Part shown: positions 10,843-46,140 of the stretch, piece by piece
Layout of the letters: each line of letters begins with the position of its first letter
Position numbering within the stretch: position 1 is the stretch's first letter
Assembly: GCA_026004095.1 (NCBI GenBank)
Contig: BPIL01000008.1
Location: 1 to 59,267, forward strand
Reading direction: 5' to 3'
Length of the DNA: 59,267 bases
From: Meiothermus sp.
GTDB lineage: Bacteria; Deinococcota; Deinococci; Deinococcales; Thermaceae
Program-made: the position numbers and the translations under genes
Notes under the pieces: model-generated
Told to the model about the DNA's origin: nothing
What the model saw: the letters and a program-made list of their open reading frames with translations, nothing else
Database searches by the model: none

Positions 10843-14383
<3,541 letters not shown>

Positions 14384-29890: not shown

Positions 29891-31726
29891 TCATTTGTCG
29901 GCCAGGTCGGGGCGGTAGAGATCGGCTTGCAAGCGCCAGAGCTCGGCGTAGGCACCCCCACGGGCCAGCAGGGTGGCGTGATCGCCCTCCTCCACCAGGC
30001 GCCCCCCGCTCAGCACCAGGATGCGGTCGGCCATCCGCACCGAGCCCAGGCGGTGGGTGATGAGGAGCACCGTCTTCCCCTGGGCCAGCTCGGCAAAGCG
30101 GGCGTAGAGGTGGGCCTCCTCCTTGGGATCCAGGGAGGCCGTGGGCTCGTCCAGAACCAGCAGCTCGGCCTGGCGGAAGAAGGCCCGCGAGAGCGCCACC
30201 CGCTGCCACTCCCCCAGGGAAAGTTCGGTGCCCCCAAAGGCCCTGGAGAGCAAAGCTTCCGGCCCCAGCCGGAGGAGCAGCCCCTCGGCCCCTCCGGCCC
30301 GGGCCGCCTCCTCCAAGCGCTTTAGGTCGTGGAGGTGCTTTAGGTCGGAAAGGGCGATGTTTTCCTCAAGGGTGAGGGCATAACGGCCAAAGTCCTGGAA
30401 GACCGCGGCCACCAGGCGGCGCCAGGCCGCAAGATCCAGCTCACGCAGATCCACCCCGTCCACCAGGATGCGCCCTTCGCCGGGATCGTAGAAGCGCAGG
30501 AGCAGCTTGACCAGGGTGGTCTTGCCCGCCCCGTTCTCCCCCACCAGGGCCAGGCGCTCCCCCCGGCGCAGGGTGAAGCTAACGTCCTGCAAGGCCCGCC
30601 TCCCGTCGGGGTAGGTGAAGCCCACCTGCTCAAAGCGGATCTCCTCAAAGGAGCGCACCTCCCGGGGCTTGGGGGGCTGTCGCAGGGTCGGCAGCAGGGC
30701 CAGGAACCGCTCCAGCCGCTCGAAGTACAGAAGGCTCTCGTAAAGCATCCCCCCGTCCTGCACCAGGCCAAACAGGTTCTGCTGCAGACTGCCCACCGAC
30801 TGGAGCACCAGCACCAGGTTGCCCAGGCCGCTGGCCCCCGAAAGGGCCTGCCGCAGGGCCAGGAAAAGAGCCGCAGCCGTCGCCAGGGCGCCCAGAAGCA
30901 CCAGGCCACTGGCCCCCAGAGCCTGGCGGCCCCGTGCGCGACGCACCGCGCGGTAAAGGGCCCAGAAGGCCTCGAGGTAGCGCCCCCGAAAAAAGGGCAG
31001 CAGGCCGAACAGGCGCACCTCCTTGGCCGTGTCGGCCTCGAGCAGGGCCTCGGCAAAGTAGCGCATCCGGCGGGCCTCGGGCGCGGTGAACAGCACCGCT
31101 TCCCACACCCCCTTCTGCAGCCGGAAGGTTAGGATGGCCTGGGGCAGGGTGGCCAGCAACAGCAACAGCGGGAAAAGGGGCGCCGCGCTCAGCAAAAGCA
31201 GCAACACCCCGGCCACGGTGATGCTCCCCCGGAAGGCGCTCCCCAGAAAGATGAGCAGGTTCAGCGGCTGGTAGGGGGCCTGATCCCGCAACACCTGCAG
31301 CTCATCGTGAAAGCTGGGGTTCTCGAAAGGGGTCAGGTCGGGCAGGCCGCCCACTTTATCCATCAGCAGAAGGTGCACCCGGGCCGTGAGCCGCTCGTTC
31401 ACCGCCCCCTGCAGATAGGCCACCCAGGGGGCCAGCAGGAAGTCCAGGGCGAAGGCCAGGGCCAGCCCCAGCAGTGGCCACCAGAGCCAGGGGCTCCACA
31501 CCCCCTCCCCCAGACCGGCCACCAGGCCGTCCACCAGGGCGCGGGTAAAGCCCAGAACCCCCACCGGCACCAGCCCCCCCAGGGCCAGCAGCAGGAGGAG
31601 CAGGGTGGCCTCGAGGGGGGCCGCCTGGATCACCTGGCGCAAAGCCAGCCCAACCAGGCGCCATCGAAAAGTTCTCCTATTTAGCCGCAACCACCTCAAC
31701 CCCACGCAGCCTACTATAACCCGCAA
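29891..31726 (-). CDS. ABC exporter, fused membrane and ATPase domains (second of pair)
   Basis: Up to 611 residues; the start is uncertain because the open frame begins at a TTG and AGGAG lies near 31674. An N-terminal membrane domain of about six helices is followed by an ATPase with Walker A GENGAGKTT, a signature written LSLGEWQR instead of the usual LSGGQ, Walker B LLVLDEPTASLDP and the switch His in LLITHRL. Downstream of the similar gene at 31804, so the two may form a heterodimer. Confidence 0.85.
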   Translation of the reverse strand: MRVIVGCVGLRWLRLNRRTFRWRLVGLALRQVIQAAPLEATLLLLLLALGGLVPVGVLGFTRALVDGLVAGLGEGVWSPWLWWPLLGLALAFALDFLLAPWVAYLQGAVNERLTARVHLLLMDKVGGLPDLTPFENPSFHDELQVLRDQAPYQPLNLLIFLGSAFRGSITVAGVLLLLLSAAPLFPLLLLLATLPQAILTFRLQKGVWEAVLFTAPEARRMRYFAEALLEADTAKEVRLFGLLPFFRGRYLEAFWALYRAVRRARGRQALGASGLVLLGALATAAALFLALRQALSGASGLGNLVLVLQSVGSLQQNLFGLVQDGGMLYESLLYFERLERFLALLPTLRQPPKPREVRSFEEIRFEQVGFTYPDGRRALQDVSFTLRRGERLALVGENGAGKTTLVKLLLRFYDPGEGRILVDGVDLRELDLAAWRRLVAAVFQDFGRYALTLEENIALSDLKHLHDLKRLEEAARAGGAEGLLLRLGPEALLSRAFGGTELSLGEWQRVALSRAFFRQAELLVLDEPTASLDPKEEAHLYARFAELAQGKTVLLITHRLGSVRMADRILVLSGGRLVEEGDHATLLARGGAYAELWRLQADLYRPDLADK

Positions 31727-31926
31727 GTCGTCGCAGCCGGAGGGGATTTCTGTTCAGTCATACTCAATCCGGCAGGCTCGCAAACCGCAAGCATCCTCCA
31801 TACCTACGGCCTGTTTACCTCCGCGCCATAGGTCGCGGCCTGCGTAGTAAATAGTTCGTAGTAGTGCCCCCGTTTCTGTATTAGCTCGTGGTGCGAACCG
31901 TCCTCCACAATCTGGCCGCCCTCGAG
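31719..31926 (-). repeat. repeat source: 3' end and flank of the ABC exporter (copy C)
   Basis: The complete version of the sequence found with deletions at 24757-24912. It includes about 120 bp of coding end and the 77-bp gap between the two exporter genes. Confidence 0.7.
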
Positions 31927-33606
31927 CACCAAAATGCGGTCGGCCATGCGAACAGTATTGAGCCGGTGGGTGATGAGCAGGCTGGTCTTCCCACGGGTCA
32001 GCTCACGGTAGGCCTGGAAGAGCTCGGCCTCGGCCTTAGCGTCCAGGGCAGCGGTGGGCTCGTCCAGGATCAAGACCGGGGCGTCGCGGTAGAGGGCCCG
32101 AGCCAGCGCCATTCGCTGCCACTGCCCGCCGGAAAGCGCCTGCCCTTGTTCGTCGAACTGCCGCCCCAGCATGGTCTCCCAGCCCAGGGGCAGGCTTTTT
32201 ATGACCTCATCGGCCCTGGCCTGCCGGGCCGCCTCCTCGAGCCTACCCAGGTCGGGCGGCGCCGAAACTTTAGCCACCTGGATGTTTTCTCGGGCGGTGA
32301 GATGGTAGCGCACGAAGTCTTGCAGGATCACCCCAAAAATAGCCCGGTAGTCCTCGAGCGGAAACTCACGGATGTCCACCCCGTTGAGCAGGATGCGGCC
32401 CCGTTCCGGCTCGTAAAGCCGGGTCAGCAGCTTCACGATGGTGGTTTTACCAGCCCCGTTCACCCCCACAAGGGCCGTGGCCTCCCCGGCCCGCAGCTCA
32501 AACGACAGGTTCTGGAAGACTGGACGTGGGGCGCCGGTGTAGGTAAAGGCCACATGCTCGAAAGTAAATCCGTACCCTTCGAAGCTTGGCAAGGGCCGAG
32601 GCGCGGACAGTGTGGCGATCTTCGGTCTGAAGTTGAAGAAGCGCTCGAGGTCACCAAAAAATAGCGAGTTCTCCAACAGCTCCCCCAGGTTAGCCAGCGC
32701 TTGAGAAAGGTTCTGCCGCACCACCACCAGCGCCGTAGCCAGCATCGTAAAGTCGCCCAGGGTGATGCGCCCGGTGACCGCCTGGTAAGCCACAAAGGCC
32801 AGGGCCAGGTACTGCGCCCCGGCCGATACCACTGCCGCCATTACAAACCCCTTGCCAGTGGCCCAAGCCGCCTGTAACCGCCGCTCAATGACCCGCTGGG
32901 CATAGGCCTGGCGCTGGGCCAGCAGCCAGGGCGCCAGGTCGAACAGCCGCAGCTCCTTGGCCGCACCATCGGACATCAGGAGGCCATCGAAGTAGGCGGC
33001 CCGTCGGCCATCTGCCGTGGTCATATCGTAGGAGGCAAAGGTGATGTGGCCGGAGTCCCGAGCCACCAGCAGGGCGGGGATGAGCGCAACCAGGAGGGCT
33101 ACCACTAGCAAGGGCTGAAAAGCCAGGATTACCAACACAAAGCCCGCCACCGAGATGGTCTGTTGCAGGGCCGTCACCAGGTTCAAGGCCATCATCATGG
33201 GCCGAAAGCCCAGCTCACGGTTGGCTTTGGTCAGGGCATCGTAGTTTTGGGGCACCTCGAAAAAGTCTAAATCGAGCTGGCTGGCGTGCTGGCCAACCCT
33301 AATGCTGAGCATCTGCCACAGGCGCTCACGCAGAACGGTTTGGAAAACCCTGCTCAGATGAAAGGCCACCGCAAGGATCGCTGCCAAAAGTCCCTCGGCC
33401 CCCACCAGCACCCAAAGCCGGGCTGTGGCCTCGGAGCCGCTGGCCAGATGATCCACGATCAGCTTGCCCAGTAAGCCCATAGCTGGCGGCAGCAGGCCTT
33501 GCAAAACGGTTAGAGCGAAAACCACGTACAAATAGCCAGCCCCGGCCTCCCGCAGGAGCCGCAGGGCTTTGGGCACCACCCGCAAAGCGGCGACTCCTTT
33601 CTGCAT
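31804..33606 (-). CDS. ABC exporter, fused membrane and ATPase domains (first of pair)
   Basis: 600 residues. Membrane domain residues 1-320; ATPase from about 350 with Walker A GVNGAGKTT, signature ALSGGQWQRMALARAL, Walker B PVLILDEPTAALD and LLITHRLNTV. This signature is canonical, unlike its partner's. Type IV (lipid/drug/peptide) exporter architecture. It lies directly downstream, on the same strand, of the RiPP operon hairpin and could export its product, but has no peptidase domain and no proven link. Confidence 0.88.
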   Translation of the reverse strand: MQKGVAALRVVPKALRLLREAGAGYLYVVFALTVLQGLLPPAMGLLGKLIVDHLASGSEATARLWVLVGAEGLLAAILAVAFHLSRVFQTVLRERLWQMLSIRVGQHASQLDLDFFEVPQNYDALTKANRELGFRPMMMALNLVTALQQTISVAGFVLVILAFQPLLVVALLVALIPALLVARDSGHITFASYDMTTADGRRAAYFDGLLMSDGAAKELRLFDLAPWLLAQRQAYAQRVIERRLQAAWATGKGFVMAAVVSAGAQYLALAFVAYQAVTGRITLGDFTMLATALVVVRQNLSQALANLGELLENSLFFGDLERFFNFRPKIATLSAPRPLPSFEGYGFTFEHVAFTYTGAPRPVFQNLSFELRAGEATALVGVNGAGKTTIVKLLTRLYEPERGRILLNGVDIREFPLEDYRAIFGVILQDFVRYHLTARENIQVAKVSAPPDLGRLEEAARQARADEVIKSLPLGWETMLGRQFDEQGQALSGGQWQRMALARALYRDAPVLILDEPTAALDAKAEAELFQAYRELTRGKTSLLITHRLNTVRMADRILVLEGGQIVEDGSHHELIQKRGHYYELFTTQAATYGAEVNRP

Positions 33607-33705
33607 AGGTACCCCTGTACTTAGTCGGCTGGCTGTTTGACTTTTCTCCAGGTATAAGAGCCCGGCTGCAAAGGGCCCAAAAATGTATTCCTTACAGATC
33701 AGTTT

Positions 33706-33749
33706 GATTGAGATAGGCGACCTTGAATAAAAAATCGCCTATCTCAATC
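33706..33749 (-). terminator. 15-bp perfect hairpin after the RiPP precursor gene
   Basis: GATTGAGATAGGCGA and TCGCCTATCTCAATC are perfect 15-bp arms around a 14-nt loop, 30 bp after the precursor stop. There is no U tract after the stem, so it may stabilise the mRNA end or be an operator as well as a terminator. Confidence 0.6.
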
Positions 33750-33778
33750 CCATTCACCTCCTGACAGATTTCCGGTGT

Positions 33779-33910
33779 CTATGTAATTTTACCGCTACCG
33801 GAACCTGCCCCAGCCCCACCGCTGCAGCTACAACTACAGCCAAGCTCAGCGCCCCATTCAAGCTCTTCAACCGATGGGGTTTCGTAAACTTCGGACACGC
33901 GGGTCTCCAT
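33779..33910 (-). CDS. RiPP precursor peptide, 43 aa
   Basis: A short gene, 27 bp after the permease gene, with AAAGGAGGTG spaced for ATG 33910. Residues 1-24 are an acidic leader starting METRVSEVYETPSVEELEWG; the Y-x2-P-x-V pattern resembles leaders bound by PqqD-like recognition domains. The core from residue 25 is CSCSCSGGAGAGSGSG plus KIT. Three Cys alternate with Ser, then Gly alternates with Ala and Ser, unlike any household protein. Together with a radical SAM/SPASM maturase, a PqqD protein, a peptidase and a transporter in the same operon, this marks it as the substrate of the pathway. No known RiPP class matches it for certain. Confidence 0.85.
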   Translation of the reverse strand: METRVSEVYETPSVEELEWGAELGCSCSCSGGAGAGSGSGKIT

Positions 33911-33937
33911 GGGTTACACCTCCTTTCCCGTTCAGAT

Positions 33938-34690
33938 TTAGATCTGCGAAACCGCCTTCTTGTTGAGCAGATAGGCGGCTGCGATCCCAAACAGAATCCC
34001 AGAAATCAGAAGGTAGGTCACACTTAAGCTGGTGGCTTGATCGGTGCTTCCCAGTAGTGCTTCGCGGAGCAAACCAGCCGAATGACTCACTGGGTTAAGC
34101 CAGGCCAGCCACCGGACATATTCGGGCAGCGCGTTTAGCGGGTAGAAGATTCCGCTGATGTAGGTAAGCAAAAGGGAAAGGATATTTGATGTGATGAGGT
34201 AGGTGGACATACTGCTGGTCAAGGCGCCTAGCAATATGAAAAAGCCACTGATGCTGACTGCGGAGAGCGCAAGGATAAACACGCTGGAGAGAATAGAATA
34301 TAAGTTAATATCAATATTAAAGAAAAGACCTCCAGCTAGTAAAAAAACCACGCCCTGAAGCGTACCGAGGACGGTGGCCATGGTCAGCTTCGAGACCACG
34401 TACGCGCCACGCGTGCTTGGCAAAGAGAAGTACTCGCCCAGCGTGCGGGCAAACTTCTCGTTGAACGCACGCGTAGTCATACTAAGCGCGCTACCGATGA
34501 CCGAAAACGCTGCAATACCTGGCAGCAAAAACTGGCTGTAAGGCACATTTCCAACCCGATCCACCGTGGAGGACATCCCGAGTGAGAAGAAGAAAGCGAT
34601 GATAACGGGTGGGAGCAGGGTTAGCCATAAGTCGAGCCGGGAACGAATAAATACCAGCCACTCTCTGTAGATGAAAGCCCCTAAATTCAT
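33938..34690 (-). CDS. ABC-2 type permease of the RiPP operon
   Basis: 250 residues, six membrane helices, of the ABC-2 family (KFARTLGEYFSLPSTRGAYV amphipathic region; ISGIFYPLNALPEYVRWLAWLNP near the end, the ABC-2 signature). Its ATG overlaps the stop of the ATPase gene (ATGA). With that ATPase it should form an exporter or an immunity pump for the mature peptide. Lower GC than the flanking genes. Confidence 0.85.
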   Translation of the reverse strand: MNLGAFIYREWLVFIRSRLDLWLTLLPPVIIAFFFSLGMSSTVDRVGNVPYSQFLLPGIAAFSVIGSALSMTTRAFNEKFARTLGEYFSLPSTRGAYVVSKLTMATVLGTLQGVVFLLAGGLFFNIDINLYSILSSVFILALSAVSISGFFILLGALTSSMSTYLITSNILSLLLTYISGIFYPLNALPEYVRWLAWLNPVSHSAGLLREALLGSTDQATSLSVTYLLISGILFGIAAAYLLNKKAVSQI

Positions 34691-35613
34691 CTGTTGACAC
34701 CCTCCTTGGTTCGCACTAACTGAAGGTAAATCTCCTCGAGACTGGGCTTTGTATGATGCACCGATACGATAGCTGTACCCGCAGCAGTAAGCCTGGGGAG
34801 CACTTCTCGGTAAAAAAGCTCAGCAGAGCCTTTGTAAACGAGCCGATCAGCGTCGGCCCGCTCTAATTCAGGTGTGGAGGGTGGAGTTATAGAGCCTGGA
34901 GCAAGCGTAACTATGATTTTTTCGGCGCTGGAGACACCAACCAAGCTTTGTGTTGATTGGTCGAGTACCACCTTGCCTTCCTTTAGAATAATCACCCGTT
35001 GACAGTTACGCTCAATTTCCTCGAGATAGTGCGAAGTCCAGACCACAGTGGTACCAAGTTCAGAAACCATTTCACCAAACGCATGATAGAACTGTTGGCG
35101 ACCATCCACATCCAATGCCACCGTTGGCTCATCCAAAAACAGCAAACGCGGTCTGTGAAGCAGCGCTCGAATCAGTTGCAAGCGGCGGCGCTGTCCTCCC
35201 GATAGCGAAATTACTTCTTGTTTTAGATAAGCTGTAGAGCCAAACCGTTCACCCATCTCCTCCACCCGCCGACGCACCACCCTGGCAGTCAATCCCAAAA
35301 AACGTCCGTAGATGAAAAGGTTGTCCCATCCACTCAGGAATTCCTCGAAACCTGGGCTCTGGTGCATAACGCCGATCAAACGGCGTGCTTGGGATTGACG
35401 GAAGGTGTCCTGCCCAAATATCCGCACCGTTCCTTCAGCAGGTGGCATTAGGCCCACCATCAGCCGCACAAGCGTGGTTTTGCCAGCTCCGTTGGGCCCC
35501 AGCAAACCTACCCGCTGACCCAAGGGTATTTCAAAGGAAATGCCCTCGAGTACCTTTCCAACCTTGGGGTAACTAAAGCCAAGGTTTCTGCACACCACCG
35601 CCATCTCATGCAT
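34687..35613 (-). CDS. ABC transporter ATPase of the RiPP operon
   Basis: 308 residues. Walker A GPNGAGKTT, signature SLSGGQRRRLQLIRAL, Walker B LLFLDEPTVALD and switch His in VVWTSHYLEEIE. The C-terminal 80 residues are a regulatory extension as in NodI/CcmA-type ATPases. Partner of the permease that follows; it overlaps the peptidase gene by eight bp. Confidence 0.88.
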   Translation of the reverse strand: MHEMAVVCRNLGFSYPKVGKVLEGISFEIPLGQRVGLLGPNGAGKTTLVRLMVGLMPPAEGTVRIFGQDTFRQSQARRLIGVMHQSPGFEEFLSGWDNLFIYGRFLGLTARVVRRRVEEMGERFGSTAYLKQEVISLSGGQRRRLQLIRALLHRPRLLFLDEPTVALDVDGRQQFYHAFGEMVSELGTTVVWTSHYLEEIERNCQRVIILKEGKVVLDQSTQSLVGVSSAEKIIVTLAPGSITPPSTPELERADADRLVYKGSAELFYREVLPRLTAAGTAIVSVHHTKPSLEEIYLQLVRTKEGVNR

Positions 35614-36385
35614 AACTTCTACCTTTGCGCCCGAGTAGAGTTGCTGCTGTAATAAGGCCGTCCAAGTAGTTCAACAGATGTATTCTCTGCTCGGGGTTGG
35701 GGGACTCGCCTACGCCTATATGATCAAAAACAGATATGCGGGCAACGCCATGGAGGGAATTTACGGGGAGCCAGTTTCCACCATCGGGACCAAAGTTTGC
35801 ACAGCAGACAATATTGTAGATACCTTGTTCGATCGCATTCAGGAACTGAATTTCATCTAAAAGTCCTCTTGCTGAGAGGCCTATTGCATTGTGTGGACTA
35901 AAAGCCGGAAGGGAATCGGCTTCCAAAATCCGAATCGAAAAACTGCCAAACTTCCTTGTGCTCTCCCCCTCATTAGTCGAGATCGATGAACCTGCCGGTA
36001 GCCAAACCGTATACAATGGGGCAAGTCGGTCTTTCCTTGCGGAGACTCCTGTCGACAAAAGTAGCAATTCAGGTTCGTTTCTTCTGTAACGACGTGCAAC
36101 CAGCCCAATGTAATCCTTACTTGCCACAACGGGATCACAAAGAATGTTTGCGTCTCCTGCTGTAATTACAACCTCTGCACAGCGATAGCGAATCCTGTGA
36201 ATAATCAACCGCTCGTCATGCTCAAAAGCGATGATACACCCCGGCGCAAGCTCGTTGAATGGGTATCTAACGATTTCCACCACATCACCATCAAGAATCA
36301 CTGGGGCCATGCTGCAACCAAAAACCCTTATTTTGCAGCAACCTTTTTCGTTCAGGGTTCTTCTAACAAAGACGGTTGGTTTCAT
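35606..36385 (-). CDS. S24/S26-type peptidase with extra C-terminal domain
   Basis: 259 residues. The first 110 have the signal-peptidase fold: FGCSMAPVILDGDVVEI with the catalytic Ser, then LIIHRIRYR and ITAGDANILCDP. The His in IHR takes the place of Lys, as in SipW/ER-type enzymes. There is no membrane anchor, so it should be cytoplasmic, unlike true signal peptidases. Residues 120-259 form a second domain (SIRILEADSLPAFSPHNAIG, LLDEIQFLNAIEQGIY) that I do not recognise. Such peptidases occur in radical SAM RiPP operons; removal of the precursor leader is the likely job. ATGA overlap with the PqqD gene. Confidence 0.75.
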   Translation of the reverse strand: MKPTVFVRRTLNEKGCCKIRVFGCSMAPVILDGDVVEIVRYPFNELAPGCIIAFEHDERLIIHRIRYRCAEVVITAGDANILCDPVVASKDYIGLVARRYRRNEPELLLLSTGVSARKDRLAPLYTVWLPAGSSISTNEGESTRKFGSFSIRILEADSLPAFSPHNAIGLSARGLLDEIQFLNAIEQGIYNIVCCANFGPDGGNWLPVNSLHGVARISVFDHIGVGESPNPEQRIHLLNYLDGLITAATLLGRKGRSYA

Positions 36386-36681
36386 AAAACCACCCCAGCT
36401 TTGCTTTGCTCTACAAGACCTATCCGTATCATTTCGGCAATGAAATGCTCAGCATCTTGTTCTGCTATCTTTTCATCTAGCGAATACATGCGACATAACA
36501 ACGTCTTTATATCATTGAGGGATCGCCATTCCTCAAGAAACTCCCAAAGGCAAGTAGCTGAACGATTAAGGCCAAAGAACTTACCAGAATTGGGATCATA
36601 TACGACGGTTCTACCGTCGAGTAAATCTGTCGCTGCATCTTGAATTCGACGGTACAACGGGGTAATGGCCATGTTGACCAC
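36382..36681 (-). CDS. PqqD-like RiPP recognition protein
   Basis: 99 residues, PqqD family (RRE). Shows LLDGRTVVYDPNSGKFFGLN and SATCLWEFLEE, the typical strand and helix blocks, and a helical end. PqqD proteins bind the leader peptide and deliver it to the radical SAM enzyme. It starts seven bp after the maturase stop and overlaps the peptidase start. Confidence 0.85.
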   Translation of the reverse strand: MVNMAITPLYRRIQDAATDLLDGRTVVYDPNSGKFFGLNRSATCLWEFLEEWRSLNDIKTLLCRMYSLDEKIAEQDAEHFIAEMIRIGLVEQSKAGVVL

Positions 36682-36687
36682 CCAATC

Positions 36688-38115
36688 CTATGCAAGCGGC
36701 AACTCATTGTCATGCAAAGCACTTAGGTGCCGAGTGATCACGCTTAATGCTCGGTCGGGTAAAGCTGTTCCCAGCTCAGGCTGCCACACTTGACCCGTCC
36801 TGAGCGATATGGGAACTACGCTCTCTGCATCCGAAAGTGCGTTTGGATAACCTTCCGAACTCCATAGATTAGTAATCATTTGATGACGTAGTACCCAGCA
36901 AAACTCTGGGGAGTTTACCAAGGGGTCACCTGTATATCCCATGTGTATTCCACGGCATCCCCCACCACACAGCCTACGAATAATACATGAACGGCATCCT
37001 AAACGGTTTTCTACACTGAGATCCCGAGCTCTTTGCAAAGCCTCAGCCTGTAAAATTTCGTTGAGTGTTTGCCTCTTAACATTACCCGAGTACCAAAATT
37101 GAAGGGTCACGAGTTTACAAGGGAAAACGTCTCCGACAGAGTTAACGTAGATTTCTCCCGAACCCATACCGCAGTTCTTGCGTGGCTTAAATGAGCTTTT
37201 TGACGGGCTAGGCGCAACATGCTCCACGTGACGGGCGTTGTGCTCTCTAATCTGTTCAAACGTTTGTCTGTAAGTCTCCCAAGTATAGTCAATTTTCTTT
37301 TGAGAACCTCTACCTATAAAGCTCACATTAATCAGCCGCACGTGTTCTGCCTGTAAAGATTCTCTGATGAACTCAAGCAATTCTCCTACGTAAGCAACAT
37401 TGAGTTCACTAACAGTACAGTTCAGCGTCGGCACCACGCCCACATCGTTAAGTAATTGAATTCCCCGCACAATCTTTGTGAAGCTGCCAAATCCCCGATG
37501 GACATCATTGGCAGCGGGGCTGGCCCCGTCAAGGCTTGTGATTATGGCATCGAAATTGTCCCTTACAGAGCGAGCCGTTTGCGCACTCGTAATAAGGGTG
37601 GCATTTGTGATAATCTCGGTGGAAAGACCTCTTTCTTTCGCATACGCACCCAACTCAAAAATATCACGTCGAATCAGAGGTTCTCCACCTGTGAAGACGA
37701 AACGCCTTATGCCAACTTCAGCACACTGGTCAATGAGACGCTTGGCTTCTACAGTCGTGAGCTCATCTGGCAAAACTGTGTCCGCGCTCATATAGCAGTA
37801 GTCGCAACGAAGCGAGCACCCATGAGTGGTTTCCCAGTACAGTGCAGCGGGTACAGAGGGAACTTTATCGTTGATTGATGGTTGAAAATTCCCATAGTAT
37901 ATAACTCGGTGCACGATGAGAGAGTGAAGTACTTTTTCGGGAATGTGGCCCTGGAATCGACCCGCAGCAAGCTCTCGAAGGCTCTCCAACGCTTGATACG
38001 GTATTGTTGTATATGAACCTAACTCGGGGTTAAGTAATAGTGCTCGTTGAAGTGAGGGGGAGTAGAAGAACACCATTTCCTTTGGTATTCGAATAGCACT
38101 AAGTCTGATTGACAT
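36688..38115 (-). CDS. radical SAM/SPASM peptide maturase
   Basis: 475 residues. After about 90 N-terminal residues comes the radical SAM domain with GCSLRCDYCY (Cys 100, 104, 107) and FTGGEPLIRR. The C-terminal SPASM domain has the NCGMGSGEIYVN Cys, FPCKL, then the CX2CX5CX3C block GCRSCIIRRLCGGGC and a last Cys in EFCWVLR, enough for two auxiliary 4Fe-4S clusters. The closest functional groups are PqqE, AnSME and sactipeptide or ranthipeptide maturases; all modify peptides. First gene of the operon, behind an array of four GGTTACC-type repeats. Its codons are AT-richer than the chromosome around it. Confidence 0.92.
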   Translation of the reverse strand: MSIRLSAIRIPKEMVFFYSPSLQRALLLNPELGSYTTIPYQALESLRELAAGRFQGHIPEKVLHSLIVHRVIYYGNFQPSINDKVPSVPAALYWETTHGCSLRCDYCYMSADTVLPDELTTVEAKRLIDQCAEVGIRRFVFTGGEPLIRRDIFELGAYAKERGLSTEIITNATLITSAQTARSVRDNFDAIITSLDGASPAANDVHRGFGSFTKIVRGIQLLNDVGVVPTLNCTVSELNVAYVGELLEFIRESLQAEHVRLINVSFIGRGSQKKIDYTWETYRQTFEQIREHNARHVEHVAPSPSKSSFKPRKNCGMGSGEIYVNSVGDVFPCKLVTLQFWYSGNVKRQTLNEILQAEALQRARDLSVENRLGCRSCIIRRLCGGGCRGIHMGYTGDPLVNSPEFCWVLRHQMITNLWSSEGYPNALSDAESVVPISLRTGQVWQPELGTALPDRALSVITRHLSALHDNELPLA

Positions 38116-38149
38116 TTTCCTTACCTCGATAAAATTGTCTCACCCCCCA

Positions 38150-38221
38150 GGTAACCAAACCCCCTCTCAGAATGGTTACCTTTCCTCTCATTTTGGTTAC
38201 CTTCTGACCGTGTTGGTTACC
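38150..38221. promoter_or_regulatory. array of four TTGGTTACCT-type repeats
   Basis: GGTTACC occurs at 38174, 38195 and 38215 on the plus strand, spaced 21 and 20 bp, and GGTAACC (the same site inverted) at 38150. Each site is flanked by T or TT and another pyrimidine. Spacing of about two helical turns favours a protein bound along one face. The site nearest the maturase gene overlaps a plausible -35 region. SARP-type activators bind direct heptamer repeats, and a SARP-like gene is next door. Confidence 0.7.
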
Positions 38222-38243: not shown

Positions 38244-38384
38244 ATGCGGAAGGTTCGGCTGTTCTTGGTGTTGCTGGTTTTTCTGGTTCTGGGCCTCAGG
38301 GAGACCGCCCGCGCCTGCACCCACCCCGACTGCCCCCCGCCGGGGGTGGTGCGCCCCGGGGCGCCTAGCGGTACTGGGCGCTGA
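38244..38384 (+). CDS. putative secreted Cys-containing peptide, 46 aa
   Basis: An ORF divergent from the RiPP operon, in the gap before the SARP-like gene. It has a strong signal sequence (MRKVRLFLVLLVFLVLGL), a possible cleavage at TARA, and a mature part ACTHPDCPPPGVVRPGAPSG with two Cys. No good Shine-Dalgarno is seen. It overlaps the convergent regulator gene by 20 bp. Its position next to the repeat array suggests shared control; a pheromone or a second bioactive peptide are possibilities. Confidence 0.45.
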   Translation: MRKVRLFLVLLVFLVLGLRETARACTHPDCPPPGVVRPGAPSGTGR

Positions 38385-39954
38385 GCCGCCGCACCCAGGC
38401 CCGCACCGCCGGGCGGCGGGGGTCGGGTTCGGGCAGGCGTTCCAGCAGGGCTTCCCAGAGGACGAGGTCGTCCGCGATGCGCTGGGCCAGGCGGTAGAGA
38501 AGCTCCGGGTCGGGCTGCCGGAGGACGGCTTCCTTGAGCTGTTCCTCCAGGTGGTTCCGCAGCAGCTCGATGCCGGGGGCCTGGCTTCTGGGCAGCAGGG
38601 GGCCCTGGTAGAGGCTGAGGGCCTCGGCCAGGCGGTGGTGTTGCAGGGCTTCCTGGAGCTTCAGGAAGTCGGCCTCGATGGGGGTGCAAAGCCGGTAGGG
38701 GCGGCGCTGGACTTCGAAGCCCTGCTGGCGCAGGCGATAGAGCTCGCTTTTGAGGGCCTGGGGGTTGGGCGCGGGGTAGAGGGCCTGGGCCAGGGCCTCG
38801 CCTGAGAGGCCTTCGGGGTGGGCCAGCAGCAGGGTGAGGAGTTCCAGGCTGCGGGGCCTGAGGGCAGGGAAGCCCTCCAGGTGAGCCGCCCCCAGGGTGC
38901 GCAGGTAGGGGGTGGCGGGTGGGAGGAGTTCGGGCGGCAGGAAGAGGGCCCTGGCCTCGGGCCGGAGGGCCTGGGCCATCCGGCGGTAGGGCGCGGGGAG
39001 GGGGACTCCTTCCAGGGCTGCGAGGTGGGCGGCGGCCCGCAGGGCCTCCTCGGCCCACTCGGTCTGCAGGGTGGGGAGGGCGGCTTCCAGGAGCGGGCGG
39101 GCCTCCGGGCTGGGGTAGTGCCAGAGGCCCTGGGCCAGCGACTGGAGGGCCTGGGGCAGGGGGTCGGGGGAAGACCCAGCGGCCGCCGCGCGGAGCCAGC
39201 GGGAAAGAAGGGGCCGGGCCGAGGGGTGGTGCCTGAAGAGCAGCACCAGCAGGGGCAGGTCGTAGGGCTGGTGGGGGCTGGAGTTCTGCCGCAGGAGGGC
39301 CTCCAGGAGTTCGGGGCTTTCCTGGCCCTGCATCCCTTGCAGGAGCAGGCCAAGCCAGAGGGCGTAGTAGCGCACCCCGGGGGCTGCGTGGGCCAGCAGG
39401 GGCGGGAGGGATCGTTCCAGGGCGGGCAGGGGCTCCTCCCCCGCCAGGGCCAAAAGGGTGAGCTCCTCCAGCCGGTAGTGGGGCTGCTCCGGGGCTTGCA
39501 GGACGGCCCGGCTGGCGTAGGAAAGGGCCTCGGCCAAGCGGCCCAGCCGCCTATAGGTGCGGGCCAGGGCGTAGGCCAGGCGGGCCTGTTCTTCGGGTGG
39601 GCCCTCGCAGCGGTCAAGTGCCGCTTGCAGGGCCAGGAGTCCATCGGCGGGCGGAAGCGAGAAGCCCAGGTGGTAGAGCGTCAGGGGGGTCTGGGCCTGA
39701 TGTGCGGCGGCCAGGGCCCACCGGCGGTAGGTAGCAGGATCACCTTTGCGGAAAGCCACGAAGCCCAGGAGTGCAAGGCGTTCGGCCTGGGCAACGCTCT
39801 CTTGGGGCTGCCAGCTTTCCAGCAGGGTCTGGGCCTCGGCCACCTGGCCCAGCGCCAGAAGCGACAGGGCCACAGCCTGCACCCGGGCTTGTTGCTGGGC
39901 CAGCAAGAGGGCCTCCCAGTAGCGGCCCTGGGCGTAGAGGGCCAGGGCGTCCAT
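38365..39954 (-). CDS. TPR/winged-helix transcriptional regulator (SARP-like)
   Basis: 529 residues from ATG 39954. The N-terminal 350 residues are a solenoid of TPR-like helices (ARLAYALARTYRRLGRLAEAL is one full repeat). A winged-helix region follows (FPALRPRSLELLTLLLAHPE and GEALAQALYP), then a BTAD-like C-terminal helical part. The domains are those of SARP regulators but in a TPR-first order. It ends 250 bp from the RiPP operon and its repeats, so it is the best candidate for their regulator. TPR regulators often sense peptides. Confidence 0.7.
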   Translation of the reverse strand: MDALALYAQGRYWEALLLAQQQARVQAVALSLLALGQVAEAQTLLESWQPQESVAQAERLALLGFVAFRKGDPATYRRWALAAAHQAQTPLTLYHLGFSLPPADGLLALQAALDRCEGPPEEQARLAYALARTYRRLGRLAEALSYASRAVLQAPEQPHYRLEELTLLALAGEEPLPALERSLPPLLAHAAPGVRYYALWLGLLLQGMQGQESPELLEALLRQNSSPHQPYDLPLLVLLFRHHPSARPLLSRWLRAAAAGSSPDPLPQALQSLAQGLWHYPSPEARPLLEAALPTLQTEWAEEALRAAAHLAALEGVPLPAPYRRMAQALRPEARALFLPPELLPPATPYLRTLGAAHLEGFPALRPRSLELLTLLLAHPEGLSGEALAQALYPAPNPQALKSELYRLRQQGFEVQRRPYRLCTPIEADFLKLQEALQHHRLAEALSLYQGPLLPRSQAPGIELLRNHLEEQLKEAVLRQPDPELLYRLAQRIADDLVLWEALLERLPEPDPRRPAVRAWVRRLSAQYR

Positions 39955-40002
39955 GGAGGGAGTATAGCAAGCACCGGCTATGGGGCGTGTTAGACTGAAG
40001 CC

Positions 40003-40242
40003 GTGACGGATCCATCGGCCCTGCTTCAGCGCATTACCCTCGAGCCCGAGGTCAACCACGGCCAGCCTACTGTGCGGGGGTTGCGCTACCCGGTGCGGGT
40101 GATCTTGGAGCTCCTGGCGGGGGGTATGACCCCGGAGGAGGTTCTGGCCGATTACCCCGACCTCGAGCCGGAGGATATCCAGGCCTGCTTGCTGTATGCT
40201 GCCAAGCTCAGCGAGGTAGGGGCGGTGCTGAGGGTGGCGTGA
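40003..40242 (+). CDS. DUF433 protein (antitoxin-like)
   Basis: 79 residues from GTG 40003; TAGACT at 39991-39996 lies six nt upstream. The DUF433 core is complete: RITLEPEVNHGQPTVRGLRY, then LLAGGMTPEEVLADYPDLEPEDIQACLLYA. DUF433 genes pair with PIN-like DUF5615 genes as presumed toxin-antitoxin modules. The stop overlaps the next start (GTGA). Confidence 0.85.
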   Translation: MTDPSALLQRITLEPEVNHGQPTVRGLRYPVRVILELLAGGMTPEEVLADYPDLEPEDIQACLLYAAKLSEVGAVLRVA

Positions 40243-45938: not shown

Positions 45939-46015
<77 letters not shown>

Positions 46016-46063
46016 AAGGTTCTCTGCTTGTTCTGGCGAGAATACCGGATTGAAGCCCCCTGC

Positions 46064-46140
46064 GGGCGCGTAGCTCAGATGGCTAGAGCACTACCTTGAC
46101 ACGGTAGGGGTCGTTGGTTCGAGTCCAATCGCGCCCACCA
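46064..46140 (+). tRNA. tRNA-Val (anticodon GAC)
   Basis: Acceptor GGGCGCG/CGCGCCC, anticodon stem CTACC/GGTAG with loop TTGACAC (GAC), T loop TTCGAGT, encoded CCA. Second valine isoacceptor of the window. Confidence 0.95.

What the first reader, a model, noticed from the sequence alone, without database searches (positions are those of the whole stretch)
33706..38221. A RiPP operon with a previously unannotated 43-residue precursor, core CSCSCSGGAGAGSGSG
Sequence: five overlapping or abutting minus-strand genes encode a radical SAM/SPASM maturase (Cys100/104/107 plus a full SPASM Cys set), a PqqD-like protein, a soluble S24/S26-type peptidase and an ABC-2 transporter. They are followed, 27 bp later, by a 43-codon gene with AAAGGAGGTG at the right distance. 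Known: radical SAM/SPASM plus PqqD proteins modify leader-bearing peptides (PQQ, sactipeptides, ranthipeptides). Inference: the 43-mer is the substrate. The alternating Cys-Ser then Gly-Ala/Ser core is unlike the precursors I know, so this may be a new thioether (or other) RiPP family of thermophiles. The precursor comes last in the operon.
Basis: partly seen in the sequence, partly recalled or inferred. Interest (0 to 1): 0.95.

Follow-up and report, generated by a model that had tools for sequence, protein, structure and literature searches.

The report
Sactipeptide operon in a thermophile genome
A low-GC block of five enzyme and transporter genes plus a tiny peptide gene in a Thermaceae-like bacterium matches, gene for gene, a peptide pathway known from Streptomyces, so it would likely make the same kind of sulfur-bridged peptide (a sactipeptide) and widens the range of a known family instead of founding a new one.

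Summary
The operon and the 43-codon gene are really there. A profile made only from 14 actinobacterial StsA peptides finds this ORF as the single strong hit in the whole genome (E 1.1e-9; next 0.39). The core CSCSCSGGAGAGSG differs from the S. sparsogenes StsA core at 1 of 14 positions, and YETP sits at the -15/-12 register of the WxxP motif that StsC binds. StsB, PqqD, S24/S26 peptidase, ATPase and permease occur in the same order in 16 of 24 actinobacterial loci; there the precursor comes first, here last. What is new: the only StsB-type match among 111 genomes of its phylum, in a sister branch of StsB whose other rows have no named organism, in a 49% GC island inside 64% GC DNA, directly behind a likely regulator gene and a GGTAACC repeat array. 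Same-genus genomes carry other cassettes behind that array. Sactionine bonds, leader cleavage, export and activity are inferred. Verdict: new member of a known kind; the claim of a new RiPP family is not supported.

The parts
33779..33910 (-). StsA-type precursor, 43 aa; leader with Y9-E-T-P12, core (G)CSCSCSGGAGAGSGSGKIT
   Evidence: NF045558 39.7 bits, E 3.4e-10; independent profile E 1.1e-9; A2 alignment
33917..33926 (-). ribosome-binding site AAAGGAGGTG of the precursor
   Evidence: sequence
36688..38115 (-). StsB-type radical SAM/SPASM maturase, predicted sactionine synthase
   Evidence: NF045574 366.7 bits, E 1.7e-109, cut-off 625; 39% identical over 429 columns to S. sparsogenes StsB-family P0029; best PDB fold match 5why, titled thioether bond formation in sactipeptides
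36382..36681 (-). discrete PqqD-like RiPP recognition element (StsC position)
   Evidence: PF05402 E 1.3e-12; PqqD next to StsB in 24 of 24 actinobacterial loci
35606..36385 (-). S24/S26-type peptidase, predicted leader peptidase; SMxP serine, HR histidine and GD box
   Evidence: alignment: HR and GD in 15 of 15 homologues, the serine in 13 of 15
34687..35613 (-). ABC transporter ATPase (DrrA-like)
33938..34690 (-). ABC-2 permease (DrrB-like)
38150..38221 (-). GGTAACC array: three direct copies 20-21 bp apart and one inverted copy; likely regulator binding site
   Evidence: 2 spaced pairs found, 0 in 100 shuffles
33706..33749 (-). 19-bp hairpin behind the precursor, likely terminator
   Evidence: not listed by the terminator scan, which asks for a T-run after the stem
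38365..40059 (-). TPR protein with a possible winged-helix-like C-terminal part; likely regulator
   Evidence: low confidence; kept in six of 20 other relatives searched

Best explanation
This is an StsA/StsB-type sactipeptide operon inside a low-GC island of a Thermaceae-like genome; its PqqD-like protein likely binds the YxxP leader of the 43-residue precursor, and the radical SAM/SPASM enzyme is predicted to join the three Cys sulfurs of CxCxC to alpha carbons in the Gly/Ala/Ser tail. The S24/S26-type peptidase then likely removes the leader, probably at ...WGAEL|GCSCSC, and the ABC-2 pair likely exports the product. Shown here: gene content, synteny with actinobacterial Sts loci, precursor homology, the island. 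Inferred: bond type and positions, cleavage, export, and a role as antimicrobial or signal peptide. The operon was likely acquired horizontally and is likely driven from the promoter region behind the resident regulator gene and GGTAACC array.
For: Precursor: NF045558 E 3.4e-10; an actinobacteria-only profile finds it as sole strong hit in the genome, E 1.1e-9 against next 0.39; StsA of S. sparsogenes (P0132) shares 13 of 14 core residues. P0132 fits all eight leader residues that PMC12710340 names (passage read) and puts WxxP at -15/-12; YETP lies in the same register. Maturase: StsB is its best NCBIfam model (366.7 bits; next 141.1); sampled StsB rows form one clade apart from five other radical SAM rows (100/100). 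Synteny: 16 of 24 loci have StsB-PqqD-S26-ATPase-permease, 14 of these 16 an upstream short StsA. Variant P0001 differs by one residue. Island 49.1% GC against 64.4%.
Against: Both scores fall below NCBI's naming cut-offs (39.7 against 42; 366.7 against 625), though two precursors from actinobacterial Sts loci also score only 41.1 and 41.2. Two actinobacterial loci with StsB in the same score band (L154 396.5, L155 355.5 bits) showed no CxC precursor and lack the peptidase serine, so low-scoring StsB kin may act on other peptides. Of 16 unnamed maturases in the sister branch only P0003 could be paired with a precursor. No chemistry was tested.
Confidence: 0.88

Rival explanations
1. A new RiPP family with other chemistry: the sister-branch maturase makes a different bond (beta- or gamma-thioether, or a C-C link) on the same type of peptide.
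For: Maturase only 39% identical to S. sparsogenes StsB-family P0029 and below NF045574's cut-off; deep sister branch. Related radical SAM/SPASM enzymes do make other links (recalled).
Against: The core is 13 of 14 identical to StsA, so the substrate is suited to the same bonds; best structural match is a sactipeptide maturase entry (5why).
Confidence: 0.08
2. The peptide is a metal-binding, unmodified or metallophore-type product; CxCxC would bind metal.
For: CSCSC can bind metals in principle (sequence only).
Against: The neighbours are a radical SAM/SPASM enzyme and an RRE, and no operon gene has a metal-transport domain name; tail glycines are as invariant as the Cys in A2.
Confidence: 0.02
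3. The ORF is a chance reading frame and the real substrate lies elsewhere.
For: Short ORF, last in the operon, unlike the actinobacterial order.
Against: E 1.1e-9 genome-wide, sole strong hit; RBS at 6 nt; variant P0001 differs by one residue.
Confidence: 0.02

Closest known systems
StsA/StsB/StsC sactipeptide of Streptomyces sparsogenes (Precord et al. 2023, PMC10288494, not held; known here through PMC12710340, passages and part of its reference list seen)
   Same: Short precursor with W/YxxP at -15/-12 and core CSCxCSGGAGAGSG; discrete RRE; radical SAM/SPASM maturase 39% identical over 429 columns
   Different: Y instead of W; precursor last; sister branch of maturase; Thermaceae-like host; 49% GC island
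Actinobacterial Sts loci with S24/S26 peptidase (16 of 24 loci, e.g. L013 Streptomyces, L015 Micromonospora)
   Same: Same five genes in the same order
   Different: Precursor upstream of StsB; two precursors in L139 and L144
StsA-related CxC type (NF045559; six of 24 loci with FAD enzyme and S9 peptidase)
   Same: CxC core with Gly/Ser, StsB, PqqD
   Different: Long leader (precursor about 87 aa in the three scanned), S9 peptidase and FAD enzyme in place of S24/S26
Streptosactin (GggA/GggB, Streptococcus; PMC8172795, passages read)
   Same: Sactipeptide with Cys to Ser/Gly alpha-thioethers made by a SPASM enzyme
   Different: Two Cys six residues apart, not CxCxC; genes named Ggg; despite the similar prefix 'Sts' it is not the NCBIfam StsA/StsB family as far as my hits show (no streptococcal row)

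Membership tests
StsA/StsB sactipeptides | short precursor with W/YxxP leader and CxCxC Gly-rich core | tested here: met
   Y replaces W (of 60 profile hits Y in 4, W in 50, no match in the first 30 residues in 6)
StsA/StsB sactipeptides | precursor over NCBIfam NF045558 cut-off | tested here: inconclusive
   39.7 of 42 bits; 2 of 8 precursors scanned from actinobacterial Sts loci also miss it (41.1, 41.2); P0001's cluster carries PF28249 as precomputed
NCBIfam StsB named subfamily (NF045574) | score over 625 bits | tested here: not met
   366.7 bits; so it is filed in the wider kind, as a sister branch, not in this named subfamily
StsA/StsB sactipeptides | maturase with CxxxCxxC and SPASM Cys set, grouping with StsB | tested here: met
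   (41-row clade 100/100; sampled rows only)
StsA/StsB sactipeptides | discrete RRE next to StsB | tested here: met
Sactipeptides | S to alpha-carbon thioether bonds | not testable with these tools
   needs mass spectrometry
Ranthipeptides | S to beta/gamma-carbon thioether bonds | not testable with these tools
   only sequence arguments against
Streptosactin (GggA/GggB) | two Cys six residues apart giving two unnested four-residue rings | tested here: not met
   core has three Cys as CxCxC; ring text from PMC8172795 (passages)
Streptosactin (GggA/GggB) | control by Rgg/SHP | not tested
   no search for Rgg was made

The most novel reading that the evidence does not exclude
The window is the one member that could be placed in a genome of a second branch of StsB-type sactipeptide pathways, apart from the actinobacterial branch, and it sits in an exchangeable slot: a resident regulator gene and GGTAACC array, behind which genomes of one genus carry at least three different cassettes with low-GC3 first genes (sactipeptide operon; an 86-101 aa peptide with a ~326 aa enzyme and ABC genes; a ~220 aa protein with ABC genes). 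One regulator would run whichever peptide cassette has been plugged in.
Probability: 0.45. Interest if true: 0.55.

Novelty: new member of a known kind. Interest (0 to 1): 0.35.

Why it matters
It shows that StsA-type sactipeptide operons are not confined to Actinomycetota and gives a maturase from a likely thermophile, which may be more stable and easier to crystallise with its RRE and peptide. Near-identical cores (13 of 14) with only 39% identical maturases offer a direct test of what StsB recognises. The regulator-plus-array slot suggests how a foreign peptide operon can be switched on at once in a new host.

Tried and rejected
Searches that led nowhere: the search for related loci with the single maturase (none); viral contigs (19 loci, best only 33% over 109 residues); phylum of G116 (L033, a Chloroflexi record) 0 of 400 (at most 3 candidates scored per genome, and the tool warns that nothing rang anywhere); phylum of G117 (L051, an Armatimonadota record) 0 of 151 at E 1e-45 (likewise); phylum of G111, 1 of 396, G111 itself (at most 4 candidates scored per genome). 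The single-sequence model of the regulator's C-terminal part is poor (pTM 0.47); its best fold match EmbR has E 0.23 and is not used as evidence. The promoter/terminator scan found no more than shuffles give. The second hit in the own genome (24% identity) was not followed.

Rejected: streptosactin as the meaning of Sts (GggA/GggB differ); new RiPP family; chance ORF.

Literature: five searches. None of the rows listed (20 of 394) counts both 'sactipeptide' and a Thermaceae/Meiothermus/Deinococcota term; the other listings show no such title. The main StsB paper is not held, so its content is recalled: StsB of S. sparsogenes forms sactionine bonds. The library holds only part of the literature, so this is no proof of absence.

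Full report
What is there. On the minus strand lie, in order of transcription, a 475-aa radical SAM/SPASM protein (36688-38115), a 99-aa PqqD-like protein (36382-36681), a 259-aa S24/S26-type peptidase (35606-36385), an ABC ATPase (34687-35613), an ABC-2 permease (33938-34690) and, 27 bp on, a 43-codon gene (33779-33910) with a ribosome-binding site 6 nt before ATG. A 19-bp hairpin follows (33706-33749).

The 43-mer is an StsA-type precursor. It hits NCBIfam NF045558 (StsA family sactipeptide RiPP) with E 3.4e-10, 39.7 bits against a cut-off of 42. As an independent test I aligned 14 actinobacterial precursors without the window's peptide (A3) and searched the whole own genome in six frames: the ORF is the best of 4 matches, E 1.1e-9, the next 0.385. 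StsA of S. sparsogenes (P0132) has the core CSCGCSGGAGAGSG; the window has CSCSCSGGAGAGSG, 13 of 14 identical. PMC12710340 (passages read) reports that StsC binds the StsA leader and that double-Ala changes at W(-15)/V(-14), K(-13)/P(-12) and also K(-18)/P(-17) abolish retention; these letters, and E(-11)/M(-10), fit P0132 if position +1 is the residue before the first Cys. In that register the window has Y(-15)-E-T-P(-12), and the leader would end at ...WGAEL.

The maturase. NF045574 (StsB) gives 366.7 bits, E 1.7e-109, below its cut-off of 625; the next model has 141.1 bits. It is 39% identical to the S. sparsogenes StsB-family protein P0029. One search listed 108 proteins, one of them the window's own. 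A tree of 46 rows (window, 40 of the other 107 picked by hand with more than 430 aa, and 5 more of the 107 as outgroup; shorter close hits such as P0018, P0020 and P0021 left out) puts the StsB rows in one clade (41 rows, 100/100) that splits into a side with the named actinobacterial rows (24 rows, 98/95) and a side with the window and 16 rows without organism names (17 rows, 92/94, not starred). The program warns of long branches at the outgroup. The nearest is P0003 (67%). A model from A1 (pLDDT 84.8, pTM 0.83) matches 5why best, a sactipeptide maturase entry (E 4e-16).

Synteny. I examined 24 actinobacterial loci (5, 19; L156 left out as a second record of the Streptantibioticus locus in L143) with tblastn and by hand. 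16 of 24 have StsB-PqqD-S24/S26-ATPase-permease in this order, as in the window; 14 of the 16 have a short CxCxC StsA directly upstream of StsB (that of L141 found by hand); L154 and L155, whose StsB is also under the cut-off, have none that I could find. 6 of 24 have an FAD enzyme and an S9 peptidase in place of the S24/S26 gene, all 6 with a longer CxC precursor (NF045559 type; NCBIfam run on three of them; the other three seen). 2 of 24 have neither peptidase (L143, L153). The exchange of one peptidase for another at the same position supports the S24/S26 protein as leader peptidase. In the alignment (window and 15 homologues; L138 has a hit but was not aligned) HR and GD are kept in 15 of 15, the SMxP serine in 13 of 15; in L154 and L155 that position reads G. 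That a Ser/His pair is the archaeal/ER-type arrangement is recalled; one search gives the archaeal-type signal peptidase model TIGR02228 at 44 bits, under its cut-off of 51.85.

How rare. Among 111 genomes of the window's phylum only its own has an NF045574 match at E 1e-50; at E 1e-100, 9 of 345 genomes in the family of L013 and 12 of 200 in the family of L015 (10 over the cut-off) have one, each count including the centre genome.

Horizontal transfer and the slot. The block 33700-38140 has 49.1% GC, the rest of the window 64.4%. Genome G017 of the same genus matches the flanks at 96-98% DNA identity on both sides, so the contig is genuine and the block is a replacement: homology ends at 38141, right after the last GGTAACC copy, and resumes at 31697; G017 has about 4.1 kb of other DNA between. 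The likely regulator gene (38365-40059) is found at E 1e-60 in 7 of 21 genomes, the own included. In the six others the array, exact or with single changes, follows that gene, with other cargo behind it: an 86-101 aa ORF with a ~326 aa protein in L165, L167 and L173 (in L173 cut by the contig end; in L166 I read only the ~325 aa protein and the ABC genes), a 217-222 aa ORF in L172 and twice in L174; L167 has a second array before a 183-aa ORF of the latter kind. Spaced repeat pairs: 2 in the window, 0 in 100 shuffles. That the protein is a regulator binding this array is inferred: only weak TPR hits and no NCBIfam hit, C-terminal similarity to Thermus, Deinococcus and Streptomyces proteins, and a low-confidence model with a helix-helix-helix-hairpin pattern.

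Host. In one search the best-covered plasmid records are Thermus thermophilus at about 75% (8 Thermus records of 47), which fits Thermaceae; the genus Meiothermus is my inference.

Mechanism. Likely: RRE binds YxxP; the maturase forms three alpha-thioethers from CxCxC to the Gly/Ala/Ser tail; the S24/S26 peptidase cuts before GCSCSC; the ABC pair exports. None of these steps was tested. Activity (antimicrobial or signal) is unknown.

Novelty. The family was described before (NCBIfam; Precord et al. 2023, recalled). New are host range, branch, gene order and setting. Interest 0.35.

Noticed in passing
window 38150-38221: GGTAACC array (three direct, one inverted copy) between a resident TPR/winged-helix-like gene and the operon; kept, exact or nearly so, in six same-genus genomes in front of other cargo.
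   Followed up: partly
L165:12862-14189, L167:13009-14312, L173: Alternative cargo behind the same array: an 86-101 aa peptide ending in a CPC motif plus a ~326 aa protein (no Pfam or NCBIfam match in L165) and ABC genes; a candidate uncharacterised peptide system.
   Followed up: partly
L172:7374-8042, L174:4011-4664 and 11660-12313: Second alternative cargo: 217-222 aa protein (no NCBIfam match for the L174 copy) with ABC genes; present twice in L174.
   Followed up: no
L139, L144: Two different StsA precursors in front of one StsB.
   Followed up: no
L154, L155: StsB-like, PqqD, S24/S26-like (serine replaced by Gly) and ABC genes without a recognisable CxC precursor.
   Followed up: partly
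window 29891-33606: Two full-length ABC exporters downstream of the operon in the same direction; the first of them (31804-33606) has only a 70.7% match of 232 bp in the 19-kb stretch of G017.
   Followed up: no
window 45941-46140: tRNA-Cys and tRNA-Val genes, which explain the short matches to Listeria and Enterococcus records.
   Followed up: yes
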